IMG/VR virus record: IMGVR_UViG_3300030419_007412
Span: 1-46,519 of that record
Origin: a virus
Length of the DNA stretch: 46,519 nt
Strand: one strand, 5' to 3'
Numbering within the stretch: position 1 is the stretch's first letter; each line of letters opens with the position of its first letter. This document shows positions 1 through 33,889 of the stretch, in pieces. Made by a program: the position numbers and the translations under genes. The notes beneath the pieces are model-generated. The model searched no databases. It saw nothing but the letters and a program-made list of their open reading frames with translations, and was not told where the DNA came from.

Positions 1-114
1 GCAAGCAGTCGAAGGCTCCTCGACCACGATGCCAATAGCATCAGGGGGAATCTCTCCGTTGTTCCTGTGGACCTCTGGGTCGTCCAGAAGCCTAACCAAA
101 TCACCTACTTTCAA
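1..114 (-). CDS. Small SH3-like protein, VGDLV family (3' end outside window)
   Basis: The reading frame starts at a TTG (112-114) and runs off the left edge, giving at least 38 residues beginning MKVGDLVRLLDDPEV. The TTG overlaps the TGA of the upstream gene (TTGA) and has a good GGAGG 7 nt upstream, which decides the start. The N-terminus carries the VGDLV motif of the paralogous family filling this region, and a later AIGIVV stretch matches the second strand of the family. Function is unknown; the SH3/KOW-like fold is inferred from the strand pattern. Confidence 0.7.
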   Translation of the reverse strand, partial: MKVGDLVRLLDDPEVHRNNGEIPPDAIGIVVEEPSTAC

Positions 115-335
115 TTGACGACCTCCAACTCGTCGCGAGACATGGGATGCAGGCCATCGTGGATTTGTCCTAGACCGGGAGCATCACGGCCCTCGCCTTC
201 GAGGCCGGGGTAATGAACTTGAATCGTCATGTCCGGGGAGTTCCACGAGCACGCAACGATGCGCGCAGCAACGCCGACGCGGCCTTTGTAAAGGCGCGCG
301 TGGCCAACATACTTTACCAAATCACCGACTTGCAT
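111..335 (-). CDS. Small SH3-like protein, VGDLV family
   Basis: This 74-residue protein starts MQVGDLVKYVGHARLYKG and ends DELEVVN. An AGGAG 6 nt before the ATG at 333-335 favours this start over an in-frame ATG 18 nt upstream. The family signature is VGDLV at residues 3-7, a central G-V strand and a C-terminal LEVV strand, which together suggest a small five-stranded barrel. It is the first gene after the promoter at 368-396. No enzymatic residues are recognisable and the function is unknown. Confidence 0.8.
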   Translation of the reverse strand: MQVGDLVKYVGHARLYKGRVGVAARIVACSWNSPDMTIQVHYPGLEGEGRDAPGLGQIHDGLHPMSRDELEVVN

Positions 336-367
336 GTCCATCTCCTGTGTCATCCGTGGACAATCAA

Positions 368-396
368 AACATAGTCACGCAGTCGGGACTGGTAAA
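368..396 (-). promoter_or_regulatory. Promoter of the TTTAC type
   Basis: On the minus strand TTTACC (391-396) is separated by 17 nt from TATGTT (368-373). The bases before the -10 read GCGTGAC, as in the promoter at 2702-2730. Transcription would start about 25 nt before the gene at 335. Confidence 0.6.
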
Positions 397-404
397 GAAA
401 AAAT

Positions 405-470
405 CTACTGCACGATGGCGTAGACGAGACTAGCTAGGCAAATCGTGCCGTAAGAAACTGCAAGTGTCAT
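405..470 (-). CDS. 21-residue single-span membrane peptide
   Basis: The ATG at 468-470 is preceded by AAAGGAG with 6-7 nt spacing, a near-ideal ribosome binding site. The 21 residues (MTLAVSYGTICLASLVYAIV plus Q) are almost entirely hydrophobic, enough for one membrane span. It sits alone between two promoters. Its size makes it easy to miss, but the strong ribosome binding site and composition support it. It is one of several tiny membrane peptides in this genome; the role is unknown. Confidence 0.55.
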   Translation of the reverse strand: MTLAVSYGTICLASLVYAIVQ

Positions 471-536
471 CCTGTTTCTCCTTTTATTTCAAGAGGTTGT
501 AGTTAAATAGTAAAGATGTGTTTACTGTCACAAACA

Positions 537-740
537 CTAAAGGACTTCCAGATGGCTTCTTTCGAACCACCATGGCTTGCCGTGTGTTTGCTGTGAACGG
601 TGTCCAATCGGTTGCACGACACACTCGATACCCAGCGTCTTGATAACTAGAGCTAGTGCTCCAGCCGCTTCGGTGTTTGGATAGTCCTCGCTAATCTTTA
701 CGAGGTTGCCAACACGAGGCTTCGGGGGTCGTCCTTCCAT
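537..740 (-). CDS. Small SH3-like protein, probably leaderless
   Basis: This 67-residue protein (MEGRPPKPRVGNLVKISEDY...) ends in HLEVL. Family features are VGNLV at residues 10-14, an ALALVIK strand and the terminal LEV strand. There is no Shine-Dalgarno before the ATG. A promoter -10 (TATGAT) ends exactly 6 nt upstream, so the transcript should begin at or next to the A of the ATG. No in-frame start with a ribosome binding site lies further in. Function unknown. Confidence 0.75.
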   Translation of the reverse strand: MEGRPPKPRVGNLVKISEDYPNTEAAGALALVIKTLGIECVVQPIGHRSQQTHGKPWWFERSHLEVL

Positions 741-746
741 GCTGAT

Positions 747-774
747 ATCATAGGAACAAACAATAAAGAGTAAA
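747..774 (-). promoter_or_regulatory. Promoter giving a leaderless transcript
   Basis: TTTACT (769-774), a 16-nt spacer and TATGAT (747-752) on the minus strand. The sequence GTTCC precedes the -10 as in the promoters at 2171 and 3269. Six nucleotides separate the -10 from the ATG at 740. Confidence 0.6.
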
Positions 775-776
775 CA

Positions 777-1160
777 TTAAAAAGTAATAGACCTAACAAC
801 GTAAATGTTTTCAAAGCCATAGCCTCGATGTTCAACGTCAGCGCTATCCTCACCAATACGAACAAACTTGAACAACTCGCTAGAGGGGTCCGGCATGTCC
901 TTCATACCAAAATCATCAAGTTCATCAGACTCCATACACTCGATTAGATTCTCAATCATGCGAATCTCTGGATAGCTGTCATACCACTTGATGTGGTCCC
1001 AGCGCATGAGCCAGTTACCTTTGCCTCCGTAATCGGTTTCGAGGCTATCAACATGTTCGGTGCATAGCTTCTGCGTCTCCTCGCACTTGGCGAAAGCCGT
1101 CATCAAAGCTGGCACGATTTTTGCATCGATTGCTAACACTACCTCTGAACGGTATCCCAT
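777..1160 (-). CDS. Conserved phage protein starting MGYRSEV
   Basis: This 127-residue protein has a GGAGG about 9 nt before the ATG. The N-terminus MGYRSEVVLAID matches a family of unknown function that I recognise from other tailed phages. The rest is acidic and aromatic, with WDHIKWYDSYPE near the middle and a C-terminal ENIYVVRS strand. It overlaps the upstream small membrane protein by 22 nt, suggesting coupled translation. It is likely a small soluble mixed alpha/beta protein; no catalytic motif is evident. Another gene here (3467-3820) has a similar MG-x-RS-x-V start. Confidence 0.8.
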   Translation of the reverse strand: MGYRSEVVLAIDAKIVPALMTAFAKCEETQKLCTEHVDSLETDYGGKGNWLMRWDHIKWYDSYPEIRMIENLIECMESDELDDFGMKDMPDPSSELFKFVRIGEDSADVEHRGYGFENIYVVRSITF

Positions 1161-1318
1161 GATTCAACATCCTCCATAAAAAGTGAATTAGATTGCTCAT
1201 CCGATACTGACAGCATCAAATAAACGTCAGAAACAAGGCTAGTGAACAACAGCAGCAGAAAAACAGCCACAGCAAGTGCAATTGCGCCTCTTATAAAAAC
1301 ACCAATCATTCTAAGCAT
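1139..1318 (-). CDS. 59-residue membrane protein
   Basis: The ATG at 1316-1318 abuts the TAA of the lipoprotein gene upstream and has GGAG 8 nt before it. The protein starts MLRMIGVFIRGAIALAVAVF and continues with Leu/Phe-rich sequence, giving a clear transmembrane helix over residues 5-31, followed by a polar acidic tail of about 28 residues. Its 3' end overlaps the MGYRSEV gene by 22 nt. Function unknown; inner-membrane location is inferred from the single span and basic N-terminus. Confidence 0.65.
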   Translation of the reverse strand: MLRMIGVFIRGAIALAVAVFLLLLFTSLVSDVYLMLSVSDEQSNSLFMEDVESWDTVQR

Positions 1319-1621
1319 TTACCATGCTCCGTTATATTCCCAGCACCAGTCTTCTTCCCACTGGCACCACTCTTCATACCATCCATAATAATAGTCGTCC
1401 ACCCACCAAACACAGCACGTTGTACCGTCATCGTACCAGTCACACCACAAGGGCGAATGTAAATACGGCTCCTCCCAACATGCTGGTTCTTCATAATATG
1501 TTACCTCAACGTAAGCACCATTTGACTCAGGATAGTAAACTGGAGCGTGTGGGTCGTGCTTTACGTCCAGCGTACAACAAGACAACAATAGACACAAAAA
1601 GCCGAGTGTAAAGTATTTCAT
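1319..1621 (-). CDS. Tryptophan/tyrosine/cysteine-rich lipoprotein
   Basis: This 100-residue precursor starts MKYFTLGFLCLLLSCC, a short lipoprotein signal with LLSC-C as lipobox. A GGGAGG 8 nt upstream selects this ATG (1619-1621) over one 15 nt earlier. The mature part is strikingly rich in Trp (11), Tyr, Cys and Asp/Glu, for example WYEEWCQWEEDWCWE near the C-terminus. It overlaps the upstream SH3-like gene by ATGA. The function is not recognisable. Surface lipoproteins of some phages block their own receptor after infection, but that is only a possible analogy here. Confidence 0.7.
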   Translation of the reverse strand: MKYFTLGFLCLLLSCCTLDVKHDPHAPVYYPESNGAYVEVTYYEEPACWEEPYLHSPLWCDWYDDGTTCCVWWVDDYYYGWYEEWCQWEEDWCWEYNGAW

Positions 1622-1881
1622 CGTCGGTCCTCCCACAATTGCCAGCCTGCTTTCGTGATAGCATCTTCGCTGCTCCTCTGTTTCTTGTGGGAGGCGAAGA
1701 CTTCGCTACCATCCGGCATACGGATGAGGTATTGCGAACCTCGGATGTGCTCGATGACTAAAGCACCTTCAAATCCTTCCTGGGTGATGAGCGAGCCCAC
1801 TAGGGCCTGTCGCTCGCGGGCGAACTGCGCCCTGTCTTCAGCGGATAACCGCCGGTTCCTTGTTTTGTCTCTACGTCTCAT
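1618..1881 (-). CDS. SH3-like family protein with basic N-terminal extension
   Basis: This 87-residue protein has a GGAG 8 nt before the ATG and overlaps both neighbours by ATGA. Residues 1-26 are Arg-rich and probably helical (MRRRDKTRNRRLSAEDRAQF). From residue 28 the family pattern follows: VGSLITQEGFEGALVIEHI, then QYLIRMPDGSEVF. The basic extension could bind nucleic acid or a partner (inference). Function unknown. Confidence 0.65.
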   Translation of the reverse strand: MRRRDKTRNRRLSAEDRAQFARERQALVGSLITQEGFEGALVIEHIRGSQYLIRMPDGSEVFASHKKQRSSEDAITKAGWQLWEDRR

Positions 1882-2141
1882 ACTTTCTTCTCCGGGTAGA
1901 ATCTATAAACGAGTCGCCAGTTCTGGCCGCGCTCTTCGTTGTTGTTCACGTCCCACGGAATGTTGTCCGGGTCCGCTTCCTTCTTCCAGGCTACAGACGC
2001 ATACTCAAGACAGTAATCACTGTCTTGTCGCTTAAAGATTTGCACCGCGATTGACGCACCAATCACCTGGCCTGCGTCGAACTCATCTGTAATGAGAGCG
2101 CCATAGTTTGGATGGTGAATATCGGGGTTAAACTGTGCCAT
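1878..2141 (-). CDS. Small hypothetical protein, possible SH3-like relative
   Basis: This 87-residue protein starts MAQFNPDIHHPNYGALITDE and ends YRFYPEKKV. GALI followed by AGQVIGASIAVQIF loosely resembles the SH3-like family, but the VGDLV motif is not clear. The weak GAGGA ribosome site lies about 8 nt upstream. It is the first gene after the promoter at 2171-2199 and overlaps its downstream neighbour by ATGA. Confidence 0.65.
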   Translation of the reverse strand: MAQFNPDIHHPNYGALITDEFDAGQVIGASIAVQIFKRQDSDYCLEYASVAWKKEADPDNIPWDVNNNEERGQNWRLVYRFYPEKKV

Positions 2142-2170
2142 CGAAGTCGTCCTCTTCGTCGTTCACTGGT

Positions 2171-2199
2171 ACTATAGGAACGCCATGAGGTAGAGTAAA
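2171..2199 (-). promoter_or_regulatory. Promoter of the TTTAC type
   Basis: TTTACT (2194-2199), a 17-nt spacer ending GCGTTCC, and TATAGT (2171-2176) on the minus strand. It drives the gene starting at 2141 and lies inside the possible 31-codon reading frame at 2172-2267. Confidence 0.65.
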
Positions 2200-2267
2200 C
2201 CTGTCATCATAATAAAAAACCAGATCGACTTCGCGATCTCCGCTAACATCTCGGTATTATTCAGCAT
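2172..2267 (-). CDS. Possible 31-residue membrane peptide
   Basis: A 31-codon frame starting MLNNTEMLAEIAKS continues with IWFFIMMTGLLYLMAFL, a good single membrane span. It begins inside the last codons of the upstream SH3-like gene. The ribosome site is weak, and a promoter overlaps its 3' half, so this is less certain than the other small membrane peptides. An internal ATG at 2247-2249 would give 25 residues. Confidence 0.4.
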   Translation of the reverse strand: MLNNTEMLAEIAKSIWFFIMMTGLLYLMAFL

Positions 2268-2526
2268 TTTTCAGCAGTTTGACTTCCCAGCACTGAACCT
2301 TCTCCGGCACTCCTACGTGCCGCTGGCGGTTGTGTTTCGGGAGCTTGAGCCACTGAATATACAGATCGTAGCGGGCTTGCTTCCTGCCTCCAAGCACTCT
2401 AGCATAGTGCTCCTCTTCAACGTACTCTTTGTGAAGCACCATACCAAGCGTGCTGCTCGGATTGTACGCATATGCCTCAGTCACCATCGCGCCGGGTTTG
2501 ACCCTCTTGCAGTCTTTCATGTTCAT
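2257..2526 (-). CDS. Small SH3-like protein, VKPGAMV variant
   Basis: This 89-residue protein starts MNMKDCKRVKPGAMVTEAYA, followed by TLGMVLHKEY, and ends QCWEVKLLKNAE. These correspond to the first strand (VKPGAMV), second strand (GMVL) and last strand (WEVKLL) of the family. The ATG overlaps the stop of the upstream 53-residue gene (ATGA), indicating translational coupling. It is basic overall. Function unknown. Confidence 0.7.
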   Translation of the reverse strand: MNMKDCKRVKPGAMVTEAYAYNPSSTLGMVLHKEYVEEEHYARVLGGRKQARYDLYIQWLKLPKHNRQRHVGVPEKVQCWEVKLLKNAE

Positions 2527-2684
2527 GGTGCTATAAACCTTTCCTTGTCGGCTGAGTCATACTCGGTAGTCTTCGCGGAAGCCCTCCTGGCCTTCTTGGA
2601 GCCAAGCATTTCTGTAATCTTAGCTAGGGCTTCAATCAAAGTCTCTTGGACTTCCCTAAGTTCTGCGCGCTCGTCTTTGGTCAT
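2523..2684 (-). CDS. 53-residue helical protein
   Basis: Starts MTKDERAELREVQETLIEAL and continues AKITEMLGSKKARRAS, a mostly helical charged protein. AGGAG lies 6 nt before the ATG (2682-2684), and a promoter -10 lies just upstream, so the leader is about 10 nt. It is coupled by ATGA to the SH3-like gene that follows. No family recognised. Confidence 0.65.
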   Translation of the reverse strand: MTKDERAELREVQETLIEALAKITEMLGSKKARRASAKTTEYDSADKERFIAP

Positions 2685-2701
2685 TCTAATCTCCTAAAAA
2701 A

Positions 2702-2730
2702 ACTATAGTCACGCACATGGCGTGAGTAAA
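2702..2730 (-). promoter_or_regulatory. Promoter of the TTTAC type
   Basis: TTTACT (2725-2730), a 17-nt spacer ending GCGTGAC and TATAGT (2702-2707) on the minus strand. It serves the gene starting at 2684. Confidence 0.65.
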
Positions 2731-2733
2731 ATA

Positions 2734-2922
2734 CTATGCGGACGACACGACGAAAAAATTATTGGCTGGCTTCCAGTCTTCAGGATCGTCGGCAGTGACG
2801 ATGTAGCGTGTGCCGCCGCGATGGCCTTGGTCGCCAAGAGTTGTCTGGACTACCAGCTTCGCTGGCAGGATATCCGCATAATTCTGATAAGCCTTGCTTA
2901 GTACCAGATCTCCGACTTTCAT
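2734..2922 (-). CDS. Small SH3-like protein, VGDLV family
   Basis: This 62-residue protein starts MKVGDLVLSKAYQNYAD, has a KLVVQTTLG strand and ends NNFFVVSSA. AAAGGAG lies 7-8 nt before the ATG. Its ATG overlaps the TGA of a 25-residue membrane peptide gene (ATGA). A canonical member of the family; function unknown. Confidence 0.75.
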   Translation of the reverse strand: MKVGDLVLSKAYQNYADILPAKLVVQTTLGDQGHRGGTRYIVTADDPEDWKPANNFFVVSSA

Positions 2923-2996
2923 TTCCTTCTCCTTTCAAAATAGGATGGTGTTAATACTATAAGACCGACAACTAAAAAGACAATAGCATAAATCAC
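2919..2996 (-). CDS. 25-residue single-span membrane peptide
   Basis: A GTG start (2994-2996) overlaps the upstream stop as GTGA, and its own TGA overlaps the next ATG as ATGA, so it is locked into the operon. GGAG lies 8 nt upstream of the GTG. The product, M(V)IYAIVFLVVGLIVLT followed by PSYFERRRK, is one hydrophobic helix with a basic C-terminal tail, which predicts the tail on the cytoplasmic side. Function unknown. Confidence 0.65.
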   Translation of the reverse strand: MIYAIVFLVVGLIVLTPSYFERRRK

Positions 2997-3262
2997 TGCA
3001 CTATCTCCAAGAAGTCACCGTAGTGCGAAAACGAATCGCCTCGCACTGTATTGAGATTAAAGATGCCGCCCCAGCCATAGCCGTCCTCGTCTGGACCGCT
3101 CACTGTGATAGCCAACTGGCCGATGAGCGTCTCGTCATCATTATCGGTTCCAGGGTCACGCGGGCCTTCACCCTGGAACCTTGCGCGGCCAGGTACGAAG
3201 CGCACCAGCGTGCCGACTGGAATGTCTCTGGGGGGTTTATTCCATGTGTATGTGTCACTCAT
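2993..3262 (-). CDS. SH3-like family protein, probably leaderless
   Basis: This 89-residue protein starts MSDTYTWNKPPRDIPVGTLV. VGTLVRFVPG at residues 16-25 is the family motif, LIGQLAITVSG is the second strand and YGDFLEIVQ the last. There is an acidic insert (DPGTDNDDET). No Shine-Dalgarno precedes the ATG, and the promoter -10 TACGGT lies exactly 6 nt upstream, predicting a leaderless mRNA. Function unknown. Confidence 0.75.
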   Translation of the reverse strand: MSDTYTWNKPPRDIPVGTLVRFVPGRARFQGEGPRDPGTDNDDETLIGQLAITVSGPDEDGYGWGGIFNLNTVRGDSFSHYGDFLEIVQ

Positions 3263-3268
3263 GTCTAT

Positions 3269-3297
3269 ACCGTAGGAACGAGATGAGCATTAGTAAA
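3269..3297 (-). promoter_or_regulatory. Promoter giving a leaderless transcript
   Basis: TTTACT (3292-3297), a 17-nt spacer ending CGTTCC and TACGGT (3269-3274) on the minus strand, 6 nt before the ATG at 3262. Confidence 0.6.
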
Positions 3298-3306
3298 GCA
3301 TGTCTA

Positions 3307-3480
3307 TTAACTACTTTCACTGAGGATCTTCAGTTCTATTTCGTCATACCACATACGATCGTCTGCCACCCACTGTACCTCGTGGTAGATGATGCCATCA
3401 TCGCTTTCATAAGAATCCAGCACAACACCATAAGAAAAAACAGAAGAACCTCTCAGAGTAACCAAATCACCAATCTTCAT
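3307..3480 (-). CDS. Small SH3-like protein, VGDLV family
   Basis: This 57-residue protein starts MKIGDLVTLRGSSVFSYG, then VVLDSYES, a central strand YHEVQWVADD and a last strand ELKILSESS. It overlaps the upstream gene by 14 nt; the upstream TGA lies inside GGTGAT, which encodes the Gly-Asp of the motif. The ATG (3478-3480) has no strong ribosome site of its own, so translation is probably coupled. Function unknown. Confidence 0.75.
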   Translation of the reverse strand: MKIGDLVTLRGSSVFSYGVVLDSYESDDGIIYHEVQWVADDRMWYDEIELKILSESS

Positions 3481-3820
3481 CAAAGCTAAAATGCCATGCT
3501 GGAGTTGCCACGTCTCCTGCGTAGCGCCACTGTACCTTGCCGTCTAAACGCTTAATGTAAACAAAGTCAGGGCCGCAGTGAGTCATGGCAGGGTTTGTTA
3601 TAACACACGAGACGGTATCGTCGAGATACTCAGTGCTGTCGCTGTCGATAATGCGGAACCCGCCGCGAGTCATCGCAATCAGTATGTGCGTAAAGAGCTT
3701 GTCGTGGCTCATTTGCTCCAGGGTTGGGAACATATGACTAGGATAACCATCATAATGACAATACGTGCCAAGGTATGTCCCTGGCTCTGTCTCAACATAT
3801 ACATTCGATCGTGTGCCCAT
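3467..3820 (-). CDS. Conserved phage protein starting MGTRSNVYVET
   Basis: This 117-residue protein starts MGTRSNVYVETEPGTYLGTY and continues CHYDGYPSHM. This N-terminus belongs to a family of unknown function that I recognise in many tailed phages. A TGATG overlap with the upstream gene supports the ATG at 3818-3820 rather than the GTG 3 nt earlier. The C-terminal half has VYIKRLDGKVQWRYAG. No catalytic motif is evident. Its last 14 nt overlap the next SH3-like gene. Confidence 0.85.
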   Translation of the reverse strand: MGTRSNVYVETEPGTYLGTYCHYDGYPSHMFPTLEQMSHDKLFTHILIAMTRGGFRIIDSDSTEYLDDTVSCVITNPAMTHCGPDFVYIKRLDGKVQWRYAGDVATPAWHFSFDEDW

Positions 3821-3993
3821 CACTCCACCACTGCTAGCTGATAATCTCTATAAGAATAAGAACCGCTACCGTCGCAATAAAGAACATCGTAGTGCTTTTT
3901 ATAGCCCCAAATATAGATGTCAGTGACAAGACCCAGGAGCTTTCCCGTCTCCTTGTGCCTCACGATGTCGCCTCTTTTTGGATCCTCAATCAC
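3820..3993 (-). CDS. Small SH3-like protein, GDIV variant
   Basis: A GTG start (3991-3993) with AGAGGTG 5 nt upstream gives 57 residues: M(V)IEDPKRGDIVRHKETGK, then LLGLVTDIYIWG, a central strand KHYDVLYCDG and a last strand YQLAVVE. It overlaps the upstream gene by 8 nt, and its TGA overlaps the following ATG (TGATG). It is too short for a 60-residue cutoff but matches the family throughout. Function unknown. Confidence 0.7.
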   Translation of the reverse strand: MIEDPKRGDIVRHKETGKLLGLVTDIYIWGYKKHYDVLYCDGSGSYSYRDYQLAVVE

Positions 3994-4159
3994 TTATCAC
4001 CTCTAAGTCCTCTATACCAAGATAGATACGGATACCTGCAAAGTCAACAGTGACGACATTATTAACTGCAACCTTCAAGACAATACCTATCTTGTCCTCA
4101 TAGCCTATGCCTCTGCGCGTCTTGTGTCTGCCGAGTCTAACCAAGTCACCGACTTTCAC
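3986..4159 (-). CDS. Small SH3-like protein, VGDLV family
   Basis: A GTG start (4157-4159) with AGAGG 6 nt upstream gives 57 residues: MKVGDLVRLGRHKTRRG, a KIGIVLKVAV strand, NVVTVDF, and EDLEVISD at the end. It overlaps the upstream gene by 14 nt, with the upstream TGA embedded in GGTGAC of the Gly-Asp codons. Function unknown. Confidence 0.75.
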   Translation of the reverse strand: MKVGDLVRLGRHKTRRGIGYEDKIGIVLKVAVNNVVTVDFAGIRIYLGIEDLEVISD

Positions 4160-4373
4160 TGATAACCTCTATCCAGCCTTGTTCTACGGCTGACAAGTCC
4201 ATCTCCATCGGCTCTCCCTTGTTGGAGGGCCACAGCACCAGTTGCGTTCTACAGTGACCCATTCCTCCCAAGGGCAAGACTTCAAGCGGCCCGACGACTA
4301 TACCTATGTCACCTTGATGCGTATCTCTTATCAAACTACCAATCGGTATAGAGTGTATCTTGCCACTGCTCAT
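4146..4373 (-). CDS. Small SH3-like protein, IGSLI variant
   Basis: This 75-residue protein starts MSSGKIHSIPIGSLIRDTHQ, then GDIGIVVGPLEV, a central strand TQLVLWPSN and a last strand WIEVISESR. The ribosome site is weak, and the start lies 38 nt inside the upstream gene, so coupled translation is likely. The C-terminal EVISESR resembles EVISEGR of the gene ending at 6950, supporting a duplication origin. Function unknown. Confidence 0.7.
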   Translation of the reverse strand: MSSGKIHSIPIGSLIRDTHQGDIGIVVGPLEVLPLGGMGHCRTQLVLWPSNKGEPMEMDLSAVEQGWIEVISESR

Positions 4374-4545
4374 CGTTCATCGCCTGTAGGCTATAGCCTG
4401 CGTATGTTCCCTGTGCTCCCGAACTAGCCTCATCGAGCCAGAGGACTCGATAGTTGTTGTCACCAAGTGAGCTTGTCACCACGCCCAGCGTAGACTCCAA
4501 GACCTCGCCGTTGAGCTTCATGTGCACTAAATCGCCAGTAATCAT
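4336..4545 (-). CDS. Small SH3-like protein, TGDLV variant
   Basis: This 69-residue protein starts MITGDLVHMKLNGEVLESTL, then GVVTSSLGDNNYRVLWLDE. AGGAG lies 6 nt before the ATG. The strand order matches the family, but the C-terminus (YSLQAMNDEQWQ...) is different. It follows the 183-residue gene with a 9-nt gap. Function unknown. Confidence 0.7.
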   Translation of the reverse strand: MITGDLVHMKLNGEVLESTLGVVTSSLGDNNYRVLWLDEASSGAQGTYAGYSLQAMNDEQWQDTLYTDW

Positions 4546-4554
4546 CTTCTACTC

Positions 4555-5106
4555 CTAAAACGCAAATTCCAATTGCGTGCCTTGCGGCTTCTCTTTAACT
4601 ATAGGCACAGTTAAGGCATGGTCAAGCAGGTCAATTATTTCAAAGCCTTTATTTTCTGATGCTGTGCCTCGGACCCACGCCTTGCGACCACTACCGAAGG
4701 AGACAACCCTTGAATCATCGTCGCTCAGGTCTGACACCAACTCACATAGTTCACGCTCATAGAAGTGATATTCAGGTTTTCCATCGTGCTCGTACCAAAA
4801 ATCCTTTGAAAGAAGCGCGAAGAAACTGTCAGTCATATCACTAGCTTCCAGTTCTCGATCCTCGTAACACGCCTCGGTCCAAGCCTCCATGTTACCGCTC
4901 TCAGTCTCGATTGTGAACTCCACGTAGCCGTCGGGGATTGACCTATACTTGATGGAACCGTCAGCCTTAGCACTCTCGGACGATCGCCAGTGAAGGTAAA
5001 AGCCCTCATGCTGGTAGTGGAGAAAATCGTCACAGAACCTTTCGATGACTTTCATAGCCAACTCTGGGCCGTGCCTGGGCTTAAAAACATAACTTGCTAG
5101 GTCCAT
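4555..5106 (-). CDS. 183-residue hypothetical protein ending in a clamp-motif-like QLEFAF
   Basis: An acidic, aromatic-rich protein of unknown family. It starts MDLASYVFKPRHGPELAMKV and has an alternating strand pattern (GYVEFTIETESG) and several Trp/Tyr-rich stretches. The extreme C-terminus GTQLEFAF resembles the short peptide by which proteins dock on a bacterial or phage sliding clamp (QL-x-hydrophobic). That reading is only suggestive. The ATG overlaps the upstream stop (TAATG), and GAGG lies about 10 nt upstream. Confidence 0.75.
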   Translation of the reverse strand: MDLASYVFKPRHGPELAMKVIERFCDDFLHYQHEGFYLHWRSSESAKADGSIKYRSIPDGYVEFTIETESGNMEAWTEACYEDRELEASDMTDSFFALLSKDFWYEHDGKPEYHFYERELCELVSDLSDDDSRVVSFGSGRKAWVRGTASENKGFEIIDLLDHALTVPIVKEKPQGTQLEFAF

Positions 5107-5315
5107 TACTTTACTACCTCAAATTCGTATTCAACTAAAATAACTGTTCGATCTCCACACAGTATTCTATATGCAGCTTGATTTGGAAAAACTGGATCGT
5201 TTGGGTCCGCTTCACAGTGTAAAGACAATATAAGACCATGAGTACAATTGTCTAGTGCTAACTCGTGCGGATCGCACAATTTAACTAACGTGCCGGGTTT
5301 GAGCTTTGCAGCCAT
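5106..5315 (-). CDS. Small SH3-like protein, PGTLV variant
   Basis: This 69-residue protein starts MAAKLKPGTLVKLCDPHELA, then HGLILSLHCEADPN, a central AAYRILCGDR and a last strand EYEFEVVK. PGTLV replaces VGDLV. It overlaps the next SH3-like gene upstream by 31 nt and is linked to the following gene by TAATG. Function unknown. Confidence 0.7.
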   Translation of the reverse strand: MAAKLKPGTLVKLCDPHELALDNCTHGLILSLHCEADPNDPVFPNQAAYRILCGDRTVILVEYEFEVVK

Positions 5316-5530
5316 ATTCCTGAATCTATTGCGTCGTCGGAAAGGATAGTATCAACACACTCGTGCGTGTCGCTAGCGCCGCTGGGGTCGCTGGGCCATT
5401 TCACCTTGACGGCCATGTAGGCTCCCTCACTAGCGCTCGGTCTATACATGAAAGGCTCGTCGGACACTACGATTCCCCACTCAAGATCGCCATCCAAATT
5501 GACGTAACCTATCAAGTCGCCCTTATTCAT
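5285..5530 (-). CDS. Small SH3-like protein, KGDLI variant
   Basis: The 81-residue version starting MNKGDLIGYVNLDGDLEWGI is preferred because GGGTGG lies about 7 nt before the ATG at 5528-5530; an earlier in-frame start has none. Family strands are GDLIGYV, EWGIVVSD and MAVKVKW. The C-terminal part is acidic (DAIDSGIWLQSS). Function unknown. Confidence 0.65.
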   Translation of the reverse strand: MNKGDLIGYVNLDGDLEWGIVVSDEPFMYRPSASEGAYMAVKVKWPSDPSGASDTHECVDTILSDDAIDSGIWLQSSNPAR

Positions 5531-5602
5531 ATTAAAACCCACCCTGACCCGTCGCAAACAGTGCGACTCTTCCTGATTCAGCTACAACGTAGGGACGACA
5601 AT

Positions 5603-5788
5603 CTACGGTGTAAAGCTGATGCTTTGATTTTCAAGCTGTGTCGTCACGGCTGCCAGCATGGCGTGAACAACTTGCAGAGTTTCTACAATCTTTTCACGCT
5701 GTTCTGGCTTGTTAACGCAGACGCACCGCTTGTCAATCAAATCTTCTAGCACTTGTTCGTGCTCTTTAAGTTCTTGTAATGTATACAT
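5603..5788 (-). CDS. 61-residue helical protein
   Basis: Starts MYTLQELKEHEQVLEDLIDK. The sequence is amphipathic and probably forms a helical hairpin or coiled coil, with CVCVN in the middle. It follows the zinc-knuckle gene with a 5-nt gap and has no clear Shine-Dalgarno, so it may be translated by reinitiation. No family recognised. Confidence 0.6.
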   Translation of the reverse strand: MYTLQELKEHEQVLEDLIDKRCVCVNKPEQREKIVETLQVVHAMLAAVTTQLENQSISFTP

Positions 5789-5793
5789 TTTTT

Positions 5794-6579
5794 CTACTTT
5801 GGGTCAACAATATTATTGATAACCCACTTCTCCACTTCCTTCTTGCCAATCGTGTGTTCGGTCAACAGATTGTCTTCGCTGACTGAGACAGGCGAAATAA
5901 GCTCGCAACTGTCGTTACTAGGATTACGATACCACTCATCCTGTGGAATATCATCGACGTTGAGAAAGTCCACCGGGAAGTAGCAGTTGCCGTGAGTTCG
6001 CGGACTTCCTCCCCAGCGGTCCTCCTTTGGCACAAGGTACTGATACCTGATTCCATGCGCTCCTTGGAAGTAGTCATCCTTAGAGGGCACATGAGACTTG
6101 CGGATATCGTCAAATCGCACTTCAGTAACGACAGCCATCACCGCATCTTGACCTTGCAGATTGTGGTCAACACTGATGAGAGCGCCAGGGCCGAAGCCAG
6201 CGTCCATCATGCGCTGTGCGGCTCGCTTGCGAATGTCCAACACTTCAGCTAGCCGTTCTTTGACCTGCCTCTTGCGCTCGGTACAAGTTCGACGGGTGTG
6301 GCCAACTTCTCCACAGAAGCCGCACTTGCGATTCTGACCGCGAGTCTCCATCTTGTGAAGCTGCTCTTTGCTGTGTCGAAGATAGCGCTCGACGTTCTTC
6401 CTCTGCCAGTCGTCTTCGGGCCAACCATTCTCAGCTAGCTCTTGAGTATAGCGTTCGATGTTATCTTTGAGGTCTTGCTTTCGCTTAGGGCAAGCACTCT
6501 TGTTGTGGCCTTTCTCATAGCAGTGGCCGCAGCGCACGGTGCGCTTGTAGTTTCCATTCTCGTCAGTCATGTATGCCAT
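5794..6579 (-). CDS. Protein with two CCHC zinc knuckles
   Basis: This 261-residue protein carries two C-x2-C-x4-H-x4-C knuckles: C17, C20, H25, C30 and C86, C89, H94, C99. They are joined by a charged helical linker of about 55 residues. Such knuckles usually bind single-stranded RNA or DNA and are uncommon in phages. The C-terminal half (from about residue 128, GPGALISVDHNLQ) begins like an SH3-family module and continues into an unrecognised aromatic domain. A GGAGG upstream supports the start, and a TTTAC promoter lies at 6614-6642. A nucleic-acid-binding early regulator is a reasonable inference. Confidence 0.85.
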   Translation of the reverse strand: MAYMTDENGNYKRTVRCGHCYEKGHNKSACPKRKQDLKDNIERYTQELAENGWPEDDWQRKNVERYLRHSKEQLHKMETRGQNRKCGFCGEVGHTRRTCTERKRQVKERLAEVLDIRKRAAQRMMDAGFGPGALISVDHNLQGQDAVMAVVTEVRFDDIRKSHVPSKDDYFQGAHGIRYQYLVPKEDRWGGSPRTHGNCYFPVDFLNVDDIPQDEWYRNPSNDSCELISPVSVSEDNLLTEHTIGKKEVEKWVINNIVDPK

Positions 6580-6613
6580 CGGGTCGTCCTCCTGTGGCTT
6601 CCGTTACGTTAAT

Positions 6614-6642
6614 ACTGTAGTAACCAATCATCCCTGCGTAAA
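6614..6642 (-). promoter_or_regulatory. Promoter of the TTTAC type
   Basis: TTTACG (6637-6642), a 17-nt spacer ending GGTTAC and TACAGT (6614-6619) on the minus strand, about 35 nt upstream of the zinc-knuckle gene. It overlaps the 3' end of the preceding gene. Confidence 0.55.
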
Positions 6643-6963
6643 GGGCATAATGTGTTTTATGTGTTGTCCTGAGATATAAAGACGCTTTCCGTTCTGCCTA
6701 ATGAAGTGGTGCATCTTCACATACTTTACAGAGTCGCCGTTCGTTCCTCCGTAGACCTGCTTCGGACCAAGATAGATGAGTGCCTCCGCGCTCCAAGCGC
6801 TAGCCATCTTTGGATCGACCGGAGCGACTCGTGCGTGTTTCTTTAGAACGTAGAGGGCTAGGCGAGATGCTTCTTCAACAGGAGTCGCACCCGCAACAAA
6901 GCCAACTCTCTCGTCGTTCGACAACCGATAAAGCGATCCTATTTGCAAATCACCGACCTTCAC
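6628..6963 (-). CDS. SH3-like family protein with longer C-terminus
   Basis: A GTG at 6961-6963 with GGAGG 7 nt upstream gives 111 residues starting MKVGDLQIGSLYRLSND, then ERVGFVAGATPVEEA. An earlier in-frame ATG lacks a ribosome site. It overlaps the upstream gene by 14 nt, with the upstream TGA inside GGTGAT of the Gly-Asp codons. The extra middle part contains helix-like sequence (RLALYVLKKHARV), and the end has KRLYISGQHIKHIMP. Function unknown. Confidence 0.7.
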   Translation of the reverse strand: MKVGDLQIGSLYRLSNDERVGFVAGATPVEEASRLALYVLKKHARVAPVDPKMASAWSAEALIYLGPKQVYGGTNGDSVKYVKMHHFIRQNGKRLYISGQHIKHIMPFTQG

Positions 6964-7150
6964 TGATGACCTCCAAACAAAAATTTGCGTGTCGCCCCGT
7001 GTATCCGTTGCTAAAGCGAACCTCATAAGCCTGGTGGTAGCGCTCTGGTGGATGGGGCTTGGGTAGCTTCTTGGTGATTATGCCCATCGTGCCATTTGGA
7101 GCATGGCGGGAACCGTATCTCACTATCTTCACTAAATCACCTTCCTGCAT
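6950..7150 (-). CDS. Small SH3-like protein, probably leaderless
   Basis: This 66-residue protein starts MQEGDLVKIVRYGSRHAPNG, then TMGIITKKLP, a central QAYEVRFSNG and CLEVISEGR at the end. No Shine-Dalgarno precedes the ATG; the -10 TACCTT lies exactly 6 nt upstream, predicting a leaderless transcript. Its 3' end overlaps the next family gene by 14 nt. Function unknown. Confidence 0.75.
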   Translation of the reverse strand: MQEGDLVKIVRYGSRHAPNGTMGIITKKLPKPHPPERYHQAYEVRFSNGYTGRHANFCLEVISEGR

Positions 7151-7156
7151 GTGTAT

Positions 7157-7184
7157 AAGGTAGTTACGCCCAGGCGCGTGTAAA
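7157..7184 (-). promoter_or_regulatory. Promoter giving a leaderless transcript
   Basis: TTTACA (7179-7184), a 16-nt spacer ending GCGTAAC and TACCTT (7157-7162) on the minus strand, 6 nt before the ATG at 7150. It heads the main run of SH3-like genes. Confidence 0.55.
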
Positions 7185-7210
7185 ATATTTTCGTGCGTGC
7201 GAGAAAAAAA

Positions 7211-7618
7211 TTACTCACCCGGTTCGCGAATTTCGTCCATGGCCTCTAATGTTTTATGCAAAACTTGTAACGCTATGTTATCTTTTGAAGTCTTCTTAAC
7301 CATCTCAGACATAGCCTCGATCGCATCACCGACCTCTTCCATATTCTCTTTCATCTTGGAGATTACTTTATCCAGAACCTCAAGAGATTCATCAGGCGCT
7401 TGAGCGCGGAGGATCATAAAATCTTGCGTACTCATTCCAGTGCCGGAATAAAAACCTTCAACAGCTCTTTCTTTTTGCTCCTGAGAAAGCTCCTGTCCTT
7501 CTTGCTTGACGGGCTGCTCGACCTCAATTTTGCGAGTTTCCTGGTTTGCTTTAATCGCAGCGTCAAGGGGGTTGACGCTCTGCGCGGTGATCTTTGGACC
7601 AACCGAATTTATGCTCAT
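7211..7618 (-). CDS. Helical protein of unknown function
   Basis: The 135-residue form starting MSINSVGPKITAQSVNPLDA is preferred because GAGG lies 5 nt before its ATG (7616-7618); an earlier ATG at 7669 has no ribosome site. The N-terminal 45 residues are polar and probably disordered. The rest is helical and charged, with SKMKENMEEVGDAIEAMSEM suggesting a coiled coil. A CTATTTATT motif lies upstream, which may mark it as late-expressed. No family recognised; a small virion or scaffold-like protein is possible. Confidence 0.7.
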   Translation of the reverse strand: MSINSVGPKITAQSVNPLDAAIKANQETRKIEVEQPVKQEGQELSQEQKERAVEGFYSGTGMSTQDFMILRAQAPDESLEVLDKVISKMKENMEEVGDAIEAMSEMVKKTSKDNIALQVLHKTLEAMDEIREPGE

Positions 7619-7674
7619 CTTAACCTCGTTATTGTCTTTTTCTTTGTATCCTGTGAGCGGTAGGTACATCTTAC

Positions 7675-7683
7675 AATAAATAG
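7675..7683 (-). promoter_or_regulatory. CTATTTATT motif (candidate late promoter)
   Basis: The motif reads CTATTTATT on the minus strand, upstream of the helical protein gene. Similar motifs precede the genes at 12580, 19868, 33387 and 45712. Confidence 0.35.
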
Positions 7684-7698
7684 GTCAAGGTTAGAAAA

Positions 7699-7788
7699 TT
7701 AGTAACACGACTCGTAAATTAAGAGCATCAAGACAATCAAGGCCACATCTGCTAGCAAAAAAATTAAGGCTGGCTTGAAATCGTCCAC
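7699..7788 (-). CDS. 29-residue single-span membrane peptide
   Basis: A GTG (7786-7788) directly follows the TAA of thyX, with AGGAGG 6 nt upstream, one of the best ribosome sites in the window. The product starts M(V)DDFKPALIFLLADVALIV and continues LMLLIYESCY, a single membrane span. Function unknown. Confidence 0.6.
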   Translation of the reverse strand: MDDFKPALIFLLADVALIVLMLLIYESCY

Positions 7789-8487
7789 TTAGTCCCTCCT
7801 TAATTCAAGATAAGAACCAACGGTTATTGGGTAAAGTTCTTTTGCTATCTCAAGGCATGCACGTGCGACTTGCTGAATTTCCCACTGAGCCCCTTCGTGC
7901 AGCCTTAAATCTACAAATTTCAGCAAATTATTTAAGTTCGTTGTTCCGTAATATTCCGTATACATATTCTGAGGTAAAACTCCGCGTGCCTGTTCTCGAC
8001 ACACGCCGCTCGACAATAGCTTGTCGTACAGCCTCACGCTCTTCGCGTGATGCGCCCGGACTAAATAACTGGCATAATTGCCACCGCTAATGCCCTCCGG
8101 GTCAATCAACGGGTCAAAAACATTCTCAGGATCGCTGGCCTGCCTATTGGACTCGTGCTGGGTTCTAAATTCTTTTGTTTCATAAAACCTCATACCAACC
8201 TCAGTGTAGCGACGAGAGATCTCGTTGTATGACCATGTTCGATGACGATGGTGTTGCGATCTAACATACAGCGGAACTGTGAAGCGGAATGTGACTACGT
8301 TATGTTCAAGAGTAGATGTGTGCTTGTGTTTGATTAAATATCTAATCAATTTTTTGTCTTTCTCATCTATTTGATGTTTCTCGACTCCGAAACTAACGCG
8401 CGCTGAATTCACGACAGACAGGTCGGACCCCATGTGAGAAACATAGTCTACGCTGCCGATGCCATCTCCGTATAAATCTATCTTCAT
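7789..8487 (-). CDS. thyX: Flavin-dependent thymidylate synthase ThyX
   Basis: This 232-residue enzyme methylates dUMP to dTMP using methylene-tetrahydrofolate and reduced FAD. The family signature RHR-x7-S is present at residues 81-91 (RHRTWSYNEIS). The N-terminal ARVSFG and C-terminal QWEIQQVARACLEI segments also fit. Length is normal for the family. AGGTG lies upstream of the ATG. With dUTPase, the deaminase and RNR elsewhere in the window it completes a dTTP supply route. Confidence 0.96.
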   Translation of the reverse strand: MKIDLYGDGIGSVDYVSHMGSDLSVVNSARVSFGVEKHQIDEKDKKLIRYLIKHKHTSTLEHNVVTFRFTVPLYVRSQHHRHRTWSYNEISRRYTEVGMRFYETKEFRTQHESNRQASDPENVFDPLIDPEGISGGNYASYLVRAHHAKSVRLYDKLLSSGVCREQARGVLPQNMYTEYYGTTNLNNLLKFVDLRLHEGAQWEIQQVARACLEIAKELYPITVGSYLELRRD

Positions 8488-11478: not shown

Positions 11479-11637
11479 TTAAATTGAGTTAACGCGGTGG
11501 TGATGCGTCCATTCCGGCTTCTCCCGGTCTAGCCACATAACCAAACAATATAAATCTAGGTATTTCTCTTTAGTCTCTAACACCAGACCAAGCTTTTTGC
11601 TGTCCCTGTGTTCGACTAGCTCACCAGTCCTAAACAT
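11479..11637 (-). CDS. Small SH3-like protein, TGELV variant
   Basis: A 52-residue frame starts MFRTGELVEHRDSKKLG, then LVLETKEKY, a central strand LYCLVMWLDREK and HHHRVNSI at the end. It repeats the strand order of the left-end family (GELV, LGLVLE, CLVMW) 4 kb away from the main cluster. Ribosome site is weak; the start lies next to the stop of the upstream gene, implying coupling. Confidence 0.65.
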   Translation of the reverse strand: MFRTGELVEHRDSKKLGLVLETKEKYLDLYCLVMWLDREKPEWTHHHRVNSI

Positions 11638-14398: not shown

Positions 14399-14596
14399 TT
14401 ATCCCTCATAAGTTTTTTTCTTATCGACTAGCCAGCGTTCGCCATCGAGAAGCACTTCATAGGTCCTCTCGTTGACCTCAGTGACCAGTAAAGTTTGTGG
14501 CCGGCTAAGCTTCATTATCTTCTTAACCTGGCCGCTATTATCGTTTGTAAATATAGTAACATCAGAAGGTACGTAAACAATACTGCCTTTACGCAT
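14399..14596 (-). CDS. Small SH3-like protein, KGSIV variant
   Basis: A 65-residue protein starts MRKGSIVYVPSDVTIFTND, with SGQVKKIMKL, LLVTEVNERTYEVLLDGE and RWLVDKK as strands. GGAGG lies 6 nt before the second of two adjacent ATGs, which is taken as the start. It overlaps the upstream gene by 8 nt. It looks like an isolated member of the left-end family. Function unknown. Confidence 0.65.
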   Translation of the reverse strand: MRKGSIVYVPSDVTIFTNDNSGQVKKIMKLSRPQTLLVTEVNERTYEVLLDGERWLVDKKKTYEG

Positions 14597-14873
14597 CATC
14601 TTCCTCCGGCGCGGGGGTCGGCTCGATGACCGGCTGAGGATTGTTGGCGCTCAGATAGCCTTGCGTCAAATTAACACAATCATCCAATTGGGCGGTTATC
14701 ATTTCTAACTGAGTTTGTATCTCGCTAACAGTTCGAGCAGAGCGCTCAAAGGAGTTGAAATCAAACCTAAACTTACTAGCGCTCTCTAGTTTATTTTTAC
14801 ATTCTTGTATCATGTCGGATACCAAGGACGGAACGTCCTCAAGGTCTAGCGTATATGTAACTTTTACTTTCAT
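14589..14873 (-). CDS. 94-residue hypothetical protein next to groEL
   Basis: Starts MKVKVTYTLDLEDVPSLVSD, then a helical segment with SEIQTQLEMITAQLDDCVNL, and a Pro/acidic tail (PTPAPEEDDA). GGAG lies 8 nt before the ATG, immediately after groEL. I have seen similar small proteins in marine phages, but no function is known. Confidence 0.7.
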   Translation of the reverse strand: MKVKVTYTLDLEDVPSLVSDMIQECKNKLESASKFRFDFNSFERSARTVSEIQTQLEMITAQLDDCVNLTQGYLSANNPQPVIEPTPAPEEDDA

Positions 14874-14874
14874 A

Positions 14875-16437
14875 TTAATTCTCCACTATTGATTTGCTAG
14901 TTGTCATAAGAGTAGAAGCAACAGAAACAGAATTCAACAGAGCGACGCGTGTTACCTTCGCAGGGTCAATAATTCCTGCGGATATCATGTCACACAGCTG
15001 AGAGTTTTTAAAGTCCCAACCTTGCCCTGAAGAGTTCTTAATTCTATCCTCTATCAATTCATAACTTTGGCCACCGTTAAAGGCCATTTGTTTTATCGGC
15101 GCCGCAAGAGACTTTCTTAAAATCTCCGCTCCCAATTCTTGGTCTTCGTTTTCTAGATCCACTTCGAAATCGTCACAGCTAAGTAAAGTAGTGCCACCAC
15201 CAGCGACGATGCCCTCCTCCTGTGCGGACTTGACTGCCTCTAGCGCATCTTCGATGCGATGCTTCTTTTCTATCATTTCCACTTCGGTTGAACCACCAAC
15301 ATGAATAACCGCGATGCCAGAGGCGAGACGCGTTATTCTAGACTGAAGCTTTTTGCAATCCTCGTGCGAGTCCGTTTGTTTGATCTCGCTTCGAAGCGCT
15401 TCAATTCGCTTGTCAACTAGCTCGTGATCTGCGGCTCCGCCCATGAAAGTGGTCGAGTTCTTTAGCACTTCAACCTTTTTGCAGACTCCAAAGTCTGTCA
15501 GCTTTATCTCATCCAACGACAAGCCGGAAGCTCTACTAAAGAAAGTAGCACCCGTTGCCAAACAAAGGTCTGATAGGATGCTGGTTCTTTCCTTTCCATA
15601 TTCAGGCGCTTTAACTGCTGCAACTTTCATACTTCCTCGAACTGTGTTCATGATGAGCGCAGCAAGGGCTTGACCCTCTACCTGTTCCGCGACAATAATC
15701 AGTGGTCGGCTCTCTCGGGAGGCTAACTCTAAGGCTGGAAGTATCTTCTTGACGGTATCTAATTTATGGTCTGTAACCAAGATCAAAGCATCTTCATAGT
15801 CAATTGAGTTCTTTCTCTCGTTTGTTACAAAAGCTTGAGCAAAGTATCCAGAGTTAAATTTAAAACCCTCAACCAAGTCCAAGGTAGTGTCAAAGGATCG
15901 TCCCGCCTCGATTAAAATTGATCCGTCATGGCCAACTTTTTCAACCGCTGAGGCGATTAGTTTGCCAATCTTCGAATCGTTGTTGGCAGAGATCGTCGCG
16001 ATGCTTTCAACATCTTTGATGGTCTCAACTGGTTGAGCGGCATCTCTTATCTTCTCCACCACAACCTCCAAGGCAGCATCCATTCCTCGCTTAAGTTCGA
16101 CGGGCGAACAACCAGATATTAAATACTTTTGACTGTTGCGCATGATCTCTCTCGCCAGGACGGTGGAAGTAGTTGTGCCATCCCCAGCTAGTATATTTGT
16201 TTGGTTTGCTGCTTGCTTTAAAATTTGCGCAGCGACATTTTCAATCGGATCTTCAAGCTCAACAAAGTTAGCAACCGTGACGCCATCTTTAGTAATCACG
16301 GGCTTGGCATCCTTCTTGGACAGGATTACATTTCTGCCCTTCGGTCCAAGTGTCACTGCCACGTTATCAGTTAGCTTGTTGACACCATCAAGAATTTTTT
16401 GTTGTAGTTCTAAGTCGCGACAATAAGTTTTCGACAT
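14875..16437 (-). CDS. groL: Chaperonin GroEL (group I)
   Basis: A 520-residue chaperonin (E. coli GroEL is 548). ATP-site motifs are TLGPKGRN (29-36), DGVTVAN (51-57) and AGDGTTTS (84-91). The signature EEGIVAGGGTT lies near residue 404, and IDPAKVTRVALLNSVSVAS near the C-terminus. The flexible GGM tail of cellular GroEL is absent. AGAGAGG 5 nt before the ATG sets the start; a longer frame adds 14 residues with no ribosome site. Phage-encoded GroEL is rare; the matching co-chaperonin is at 28249-28512. It probably folds phage proteins that the host chaperonin handles poorly. Confidence 0.96.
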   Translation of the reverse strand: MSKTYCRDLELQQKILDGVNKLTDNVAVTLGPKGRNVILSKKDAKPVITKDGVTVANFVELEDPIENVAAQILKQAANQTNILAGDGTTTSTVLAREIMRNSQKYLISGCSPVELKRGMDAALEVVVEKIRDAAQPVETIKDVESIATISANNDSKIGKLIASAVEKVGHDGSILIEAGRSFDTTLDLVEGFKFNSGYFAQAFVTNERKNSIDYEDALILVTDHKLDTVKKILPALELASRESRPLIIVAEQVEGQALAALIMNTVRGSMKVAAVKAPEYGKERTSILSDLCLATGATFFSRASGLSLDEIKLTDFGVCKKVEVLKNSTTFMGGAADHELVDKRIEALRSEIKQTDSHEDCKKLQSRITRLASGIAVIHVGGSTEVEMIEKKHRIEDALEAVKSAQEEGIVAGGGTTLLSCDDFEVDLENEDQELGAEILRKSLAAPIKQMAFNGGQSYELIEDRIKNSSGQGWDFKNSQLCDMISAGIIDPAKVTRVALLNSVSVASTLMTTSKSIVEN

Positions 16438-16467
16438 ACGTACCTCTCTGCAATATACAGTAATAAC

Positions 16468-16494
16468 ATTATAAGACAAGTCAAACTATAATTT
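16468..16494 (-). promoter_or_regulatory. Possible groEL promoter
   Basis: A consensus TATAAT (16468-16473) lies 30 nt before the groEL ATG on the minus strand. A weak TTTAAA sits about 18 nt further upstream. A TTGACT is also present but only 5 nt from the -10. Confidence 0.4.
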
Positions 16495-16498
16495 AAAT

Positions 16499-18217: not shown

Positions 18218-18235
18218 GCTAATACCTCTATATAA

Positions 18236-33861: not shown

Positions 33862-33889
33862 AATATAAGAACTTAAAAAAATAAATCAA
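33862..33889 (-). promoter_or_regulatory. Possible leaderless promoter of the deaminase gene
   Basis: TTGATT (33884-33889), a 16-nt spacer and TATATT (33862-33867) on the minus strand, 7 nt before the ATG at 33854. Confidence 0.45.

What the first reader, a model, noticed from the sequence alone, without database searches (positions are those of the whole stretch)
1..7150. Expanded family of tiny SH3/KOW-like proteins filling the left-end region
About 16 genes between 1 and 7150, plus two at 11479-11637 and 14399-14596, share an N-terminal VGDLV-type motif (variants VGNLV, VGSLI, VGTLV, PGTLV, KGDLI, RGDIV), an internal G-[IVL]-[VI] strand, a central strand and a C-terminal LEV[IV] strand. 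Sizes are 52-111 residues and the loops differ widely. This looks like serial duplication and divergence of one small beta-barrel into a set of possibly different host-interacting proteins. I know of no described function for such an array.
Basis: partly seen in the sequence, partly recalled or inferred. Interest (0 to 1): 0.82.

Follow-up and report, generated by a model that had tools for sequence, protein, structure and literature searches.

The report
Shuffling cassette array of phage SH3 barrels
A large, uncultured marine virus of bacteria carries a row of tiny genes that all encode the same small barrel-shaped protein fold with different surfaces, and in its relatives these genes are joined head to tail by one short DNA sequence that ends one protein while starting the next, so whole genes can be swapped in and out without breaking either neighbour.

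Summary
The observation largely holds. Twelve genes in 1-7150 and one at 11479 form one family. Also supported: 2993-3262, by profile comparison and fold. Probable: 2257-2526. Not supported: 1618-1881, 6628-7026 and (beyond 11 residues) 14399-14599. AlphaFold2 gives a confident five-stranded SH3-like barrel (pLDDT 95.8); PDB hits are KOW, PetP, HspQ, YorP and PWWP barrels. The family is nearly absent from Pfam, PHROGs, NCBIfam and isolated phages. Related marine phage contigs hold up to 32 members per locus.

It encodes (L)EVISESR* of one gene and, one frame over, VKVGDLV of the next; GGAGGT inside 'LEV' is a Shine-Dalgarno-like site. Of 567 distinct neighbouring pairs, 444 share exactly this register. 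Cassette-sized indels between related phages fall at joints (11 of 20; 2.1 expected). Two contigs, 99.5-100% identical over 11 kb, differ by one cassette flanked by a 20-nt repeat.

Best reading: a translationally coupled array of SH3-barrel genes that turns over as whole-gene cassettes by recombination at dual-coding joints. Recombination and a host-interaction role are inferred; biochemical function is untested.

The parts
1..114 (-). g01, SH3-like member cut by the window end (cluster c1, also in several related phages)
   Evidence: HMM E=1.7e-7; leave-one-out p=0.001; cluster
111..353 (-). g02, SH3-like member with long loops (cluster c7)
   Evidence: HMM E=1.2e-8; hhalign 97.2%
537..740 (-). 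g03, SH3-like member (cluster c4)
   Evidence: HMM E=1.4e-9
2257..2526 (-). g09, probable divergent member (PGAMV variant), conserved in relatives
   Evidence: hhalign 75.7% over 50 columns; leave-one-out p=0.03
2734..2922 (-). g11, SH3-like member (cluster c2)
   Evidence: HMM E=7e-7
2993..3262 (-). g12, divergent member, same five-strand order
   Evidence: hhalign 94.9%; AlphaFold2 pLDDT 81.3 from five orthologues only; Foldseek SH3/PetP/ribosomal hits
3307..3480 (-). g13, SH3-like member used for the main model
   Evidence: HMM E=3.8e-13; AlphaFold2 pLDDT 95.8; Foldseek
3467..3480 (-). in-register joint: ...DEDW* of g14 (3467-3823, unrelated MGTRSN family) over MKIGD of g13
   Evidence: direct reading
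3820..3993 (-). g15, SH3-like member
   Evidence: HMM E=1.6e-8
3986..4159 (-). g16, SH3-like member (cluster c8)
   Evidence: HMM E=1.5e-9
4140..4175 (-). canonical dual-coding joint g17>g16: TGGATAGAGGTTATCAGTGAAAGTCGGTGACTTGGT = WIEVISESR* / VKVGDLV; stop of g17 at 4146-4148, start of g16 at 4159
   Evidence: direct reading; 20-mer pattern expected 0.00 by chance
4146..4373 (-). g17, SH3-like member (cluster c13)
   Evidence: HMM E=1.2e-8
4336..4349 (-). in-register overlap ...YTDW* of g18 over IPIGS of g17
   Evidence: direct reading; same in two relatives
4336..4545 (-). g18, SH3-like member (cluster c3)
   Evidence: HMM E=2e-12
5106..5315 (-). g20, SH3-like member (cluster c17)
   Evidence: HMM E=5.6e-6; hhalign 95.9%
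5285..5557 (-). g21, SH3-like member (cluster c18)
   Evidence: HMM E=3.2e-6; hhalign 95.6%
5794..6579 (-). g23, conserved neighbour with two CCHC zinc knuckles; its C-terminal domain has a GxGALI...VVT pattern, membership unproven
   Evidence: sequence and homologues; hhalign only 21.6%
6628..6963 (-). g24, not shown to be an SH3 member, but its start VKVGDLQ sits in a canonical joint
   Evidence: hhalign 16.5%; joint read directly
6950..6963 (-). canonical joint g25>g24: CLEVISEGR* / VKVGDLQ
   Evidence: direct reading
6950..7150 (-). g25, SH3-like member
   Evidence: HMM E=1.2e-13
11479..11637 (-). g26, outlying SH3-like member
   Evidence: HMM E=1.4e-7

Best explanation
The region is one example of a modular gene array carried by a clade of large marine phages. 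Shown: many small genes encode one SH3-like barrel scaffold (fold predicted) with different loops; in the typical array each gene is joined to the next by a ~36-nt sequence that is read in two frames (C-terminal EVISESR* of one gene, N-terminal VKVGDLV of the next) and carries a Shine-Dalgarno-like GGAGGT; cassettes differ in presence and order between related phages, with edges at joints. Inferred: recombination between joints, possibly by the phage's UvsX-like recombinase, deletes, duplicates or inserts whole genes while leaving both reading frames intact; the overlap couples translation along the operon; each barrel binds a different host (or phage) target during takeover or counter-defence, so that the phage keeps an exchangeable kit of binders on one scaffold.
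For: Fold: AlphaFold2 of g13 pLDDT 95.8, five strands; Foldseek probability 1.00 to eS4 KOW, PetP, HspQ, YorP and NSD3 PWWP1, TM about 0.7; profile hits in the PDB are mostly SH3-type barrels, best HERC2 at 5.5e-6. Array: 172 members in 12 loci, up to 26 each. Joint: 87 of 124 neighbouring pairs and 444 of 567 in one register; Gly codon GGT 75/75 in joints versus 68/139 in other members and 278/965 elsewhere; Glu of LEV is GAG in 52/55 versus 377/797 (p = 4e-13); nucleotide identity between genes of one contig is 0.35-0.89 within about -21 to +14 of the Gly codon and about 0.26-0.30 outside. Turnover: reordered cassettes; exact single-cassette indels; 11 of 20 indels at joints versus 2.1 expected, p <= 2e-4. 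Use of the genes: dN/dS 0.07-0.29. A UvsX-like recombinase is encoded at 33886-35028.
Against: No recombination event was observed in the laboratory. The shared 20 nt is short for UvsX-type recombination. Joint conservation could follow from translation coupling and protein constraint alone. Host targets are unknown; no member matches a named counter-defence protein, though only Pfam, PHROGs, NCBIfam and PADLOC were tried. The window itself is a degenerate example with few canonical joints. L114/L117 are metagenome contigs, so assembly error is possible, although a 20-nt repeat is shorter than usual assembly k-mers.
Confidence: 0.66

Rival explanations
1. The joint is kept only for compact translation: overlap saves DNA and couples ribosome re-initiation, and recombination at joints is a by-product of that similarity.
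For: GGAGGT lies 6 nt before the start codon; GAG is also favoured in LEV of members outside in-register joints (36/44), as expected if a downstream start needs it; 57 further pairs use the simpler 4-nt overlap.
Against: Indels at joints are in clear excess and the cassette order is reshuffled among phages, so the joint acts as an exchange point whatever its first cause. This rival explains origin, not the turnover.
Confidence: 0.3
2. The barrels are KOW-type nucleic-acid or ribosome/RNA-polymerase binders that modulate host transcription or translation, like T4 MotB or NusG.
For: Nearest folds are KOW domains of eS4; single members hit CarD_TRCF_RID (1.2e-5) and KOWx_SPT5 (4e-4); a g12 homologue (L028 17543-17887) is fused to a zinc knuckle and g23 carries two; T4 MotB, with a predicted KOW domain, binds DNA and alters H-NS binding (PMC7827196).
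Against: No general basic charge: median pI 6.3, 43% below 6. Pfam KOW was not among the families shown for members. Conserved residues are those expected of the barrel core, not of a shared surface.
Confidence: 0.3
3. Members were acquired independently from a large phage gene pool rather than duplicated in the lineage.
For: Many are singletons within the loci compared (61 of 175 members); neighbours in the window are no more alike than random order (p = 0.90).
Against: A 56%-identical pair within one contig, neighbour similarity in four loci (p 0.006-0.034), and a shared joint. Exchange and duplication probably both act.
Confidence: 0.25
4. The similarity is a chance motif in unrelated small proteins.
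For: Loops differ widely and pairwise comparison within the window is mostly not significant.
Against: Leave-one-out, profile and structure results.
Confidence: 0.01

Closest known systems
PeMods / PeSLs: mobile promoter (early)-stem-loop cassettes of T4-type phages (Arbiol 2010; Comeau 2014)
   Same: Small genes of a variable region shuffled as modules by recombination between short repeated sequences at the gene borders (as summarised in PMC4503421 and from my own knowledge; the original papers were not readable here).
   Different: There the repeat is a non-coding promoter/terminator between unrelated genes. Here it lies inside two overlapping reading frames, holds ribosome-binding site, start and stop, and the cassettes are mostly one protein family.
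S-PM2 cyanophage 'ORFanage' (PMC4503421)
   Same: A block of small orphan genes in a marine phage, readily lost.
   Different: Lost as one large block; those authors saw rarely conserved synteny and proposed mispackaging. I saw no shared fold or joint reported in the passages read.
KOW / SH3-like single-domain proteins: YorP, PetP, HspQ, MotB N-terminal domain, CarD RID
   Same: Five-stranded SH3-like barrel, small; known ones bind proteins or nucleic acids.
   Different: Single genes, not tandem arrays; weak or no sequence similarity.
DUF2158, DUF3553, PcrA_UvrD_tudor and similar Pfam small barrels
   Same: Fold class; weak hits from single members.
   Different: No member-wide match; the family is not covered by Pfam.

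Membership tests
SH3-like small barrel superfamily | five-stranded barrel with a short helical turn before the last strand | tested here: met
   strands 6-9, 18-25, 31-37, 42-46, short helix, 50-54; same order in g12; Foldseek. Predicted, not solved.
KOW domain family (PF00467) | sequence match to the KOW motif model | tested here: not met
   No KOW hit among the families shown for 110 members (25 of 31 families are shown); only KOWx_SPT5 for one member.
KOW domain family (PF00467) | binds RNA/DNA, ribosome or RNA polymerase | not testable with these tools
   needs biochemistry
CarD/TRCF RNA-polymerase-interacting domain | sequence match to PF02559 across the family | tested here: not met
   one of 110 members, at 1.2e-5
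PeMod/PeSL cassettes | exchange of small genes at a repeated border sequence | tested here: met
PeMod/PeSL cassettes | border is an intergenic early promoter plus stem-loop | tested here: not met
   joint is coding in two frames. Separate promoter-like and stem-loop matches lie in gaps at 2171-2239 and 2702-2730, near chance level.
Known anti-phage defence proteins (PADLOC) | model match | tested here: not met
   one member at E = 0.006 only

The most novel reading that the evidence does not exclude
The joint is a selected, frame-safe exchange site: a coding sequence constrained in two frames plus a ribosome-binding site, so that a crossover between two joints yields intact genes on both sides. 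This would make the array a dedicated evolvability device for phage-encoded binders on one scaffold, in effect a gene-cassette system without an integrase.
Probability: 0.35. Interest if true: 0.92.

Novelty: new variant of a known kind. Interest (0 to 1): 0.8.

Why it matters
It explains how one lineage of large marine phages keeps dozens of tiny exchangeable genes, gives a DNA signature to find such arrays in metagenomes, and makes a testable claim about how phages generate and swap host-interaction proteins. The scaffold (about 60 residues, variable loops, easily made) also makes target screening practical.

Tried and rejected
Pairwise phmmer among window members was mostly not significant, so profiles were used. 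PHROGs and Pfam scans of single members gave nothing useful. g07, g04, g14 and g19 were rejected as members and served as negative controls. A generic basic nucleic-acid-binding role is not supported by charge. tblastn of g23 or of a typical member found no isolate phage; the joint 37-mer gave almost only matches of 17-23 nt at chance E-values, plus one of 30 nt at 83%. Literature searches found no description of such arrays, but most subscription papers are not held. The five bacterial-genome hits are MAGs; at least three of those genomes (G042, G043, G044) carry a polymerase of this phage clade, so I read them as phage sequence in the bin.
Full report
Setting. The window is a 46.5-kb linear IMG/VR virus fragment. 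It carries GroEL, ClpP, IMPDH, a DNA polymerase III alpha-like polymerase, ribonucleotide reductase, DnaB-like and UvsX-like genes. Relatives with the same gene neighbourhood lie on contigs of up to 118-186 kb. Of 30 virus contigs that carry the array signature and were checked, 25 have the same polymerase at 42-78% identity (counted from its table), so the arrays mark one clade of large phages. I found no cultured member in the 50,697-record isolate collection.

Observation. All candidate genes in 1-7150 are on the minus strand. A profile from window members, iterated over 1,970 ORFs of the window and eleven related loci, collects 172 members at E <= 1e-3 and no shuffled ORF at that level. 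The window has 13, twelve of them in 1-7150 and one at 11479. Leave-one-out tests support each (p <= 0.006). g12 joins by profile-profile comparison and by a model with the same strand order; g09 is probable; g07 is rejected; g24 and g27 are not supported as full members. In the 118.8-kb contig all nine profile hits lie within 106.2-113.5 kb.

Fold. With 110 diverse family members AlphaFold2 gives g13 a five-stranded barrel at pLDDT 95.8. Foldseek returns KOW domains of ribosomal protein eS4, PetP, HspQ, YorP, NSD3 PWWP1 and R67 DHFR, all SH3-like barrels (fold class from general knowledge). A sequence profile alone hits HERC2 and then, mostly, other SH3-type barrels. The conserved positions (G4, L6, V7, G21, V23, V38, W40, L56) look like core positions, and the loops vary in length and sequence (inference from the strand map). 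Members are not generally basic.

The joint. Looking at gene borders showed that the C-terminal EVISESR* of one gene and the N-terminal VKVGDLV of the next share nucleotides: GAG GTT ATC AGT GAA AGT CGG TGA in one frame, GTG AAA GTC GGT GAT TTA GTT in the other. In the window this is seen at g17>g16 (stop at 4146, start at 4159), at g25>g24 (6950/6963) and, with a diverged upstream half, at g14>g13 and g18>g17. A control was needed, because any gene starting ATGAAAGTCGGTGAT automatically has a stop in that register. Therefore only pairs in which both genes are profile-confirmed were counted: 87 of 124 neighbours in the first set, and 444 of 567 in a second set that was fetched by the joint pattern and so is biased towards it. 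The [SN][EA][SG][RG] tail occurs in 61 of 87 in-register genes, in 0 of 37 other close neighbours and in 8 of 115 distant ones, so the tail is mostly a product of the overlap. The codon for the conserved Gly is GGT in 75/75 joints, 68/139 other members and 278/965 elsewhere. The Glu of LEV is GAG in 52/55 joints against 377/797 other Glu codons; with its neighbours it spells GGAGGT six bases before the start codon. Nucleotide identity among genes of one contig stands at background except for this island.

Turnover. Orthologous cassettes occur in different order and company in related phages. Two closely related contigs (L093/L094) differ by cassettes in both directions, with edges inside joints. 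Contigs L114 and L117, 99.5-100% identical over 11 kb, differ by a single 176-nt cassette whose two edges share ATGAAAGTCGGTGATTTGGT; the short form is exactly the crossover product. After collapsing repeats by hand, 11 of 20 indels lie at joints against 2.1 expected under random placement in the arrays (p <= 2e-4). One recent duplicate pair is 56% identical. Orthologues are under purifying selection, pooled dN/dS 0.13, 0.07 and 0.29 (dS in the second is near saturation), so the genes are in use, not decaying.

Reach. These 124 loci together hold 1,131 members.

Mechanism. Shown: common predicted fold, array, dual-coding joint with a ribosome-binding-site-like sequence, cassette-wise differences at joints, purifying selection. 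Inferred: recombination at joints causes the differences; overlap couples translation; each barrel has its own partner in host takeover or counter-defence. Two observations tie part of the family to nucleic acids: a g12 homologue fused to a zinc knuckle, and the neighbouring two-knuckle protein g23. I therefore keep a KOW-like transcription/translation role as a serious rival.

Known systems. T4-type PeMods/PeSLs also shuffle small genes at repeated borders, but their borders are intergenic promoters and stem-loops; here the border is coding in two frames. I could not read the two original papers and rely on PMC4503421 and my own knowledge for their content. T4 MotB shows that a phage protein with a predicted KOW domain can act on host nucleoid DNA (PMC7827196). 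I found no description of arrays of this kind in the papers that could be searched.

Noticed in passing
window 5794-6579 (-): g23: 261-aa protein with two CCHC zinc knuckles (CGHCYEKGHNKSAC, CGFCGEVGHTRRTC) and a C-terminal domain, conserved in about 20 related loci, often beside the array, with no match in isolate phages.
   Followed up: partly
L028 17543-17887 (+): A g12 homologue with an N-terminal zinc knuckle (CGYCAKRGHTRRSC) fused to the SH3-like domain.
   Followed up: partly
window 777-1160 and 3467-3823 (-): Two further small conserved families inside the array, MGYRSEV and MGTRSNVYVETEPGTYLGTYCHYDGYPS (the latter phrog_1987, 1.7e-6), both of unknown function.
   Followed up: no
window 14399-14599 (-): g27 (KGDLVYVPSxVxLY...YEVxxxGxxWLV) is a conserved gene near groEL in about 17 related loci; possibly a separate barrel family.
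   Followed up: partly
window 2171-2239 and 2702-2730 (-): Stem-loop plus promoter-like match together in intergenic gaps of the array, recalling PeSLs; 15 of 16 promoter-like matches in 1-7800 are on the coding strand (16 found, 8.5 expected).
   Followed up: no
window 14875-18898 (-): Phage-encoded GroEL, a 572-aa protein without any Pfam match, and ClpP in a row; also small heat-shock-like, peptide-deformylase-like, IMP dehydrogenase and UV-endonuclease-like genes nearby.
   Followed up: no
L224, L225 (genome contigs): A 305-kb contig binned as Methylococcaceae TMED69 and a WOR-3 'chromosome' (CP070664) carry this phage clade's polymerase and SH3 arrays; probably phage sequence in bacterial bins.
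   Followed up: partly
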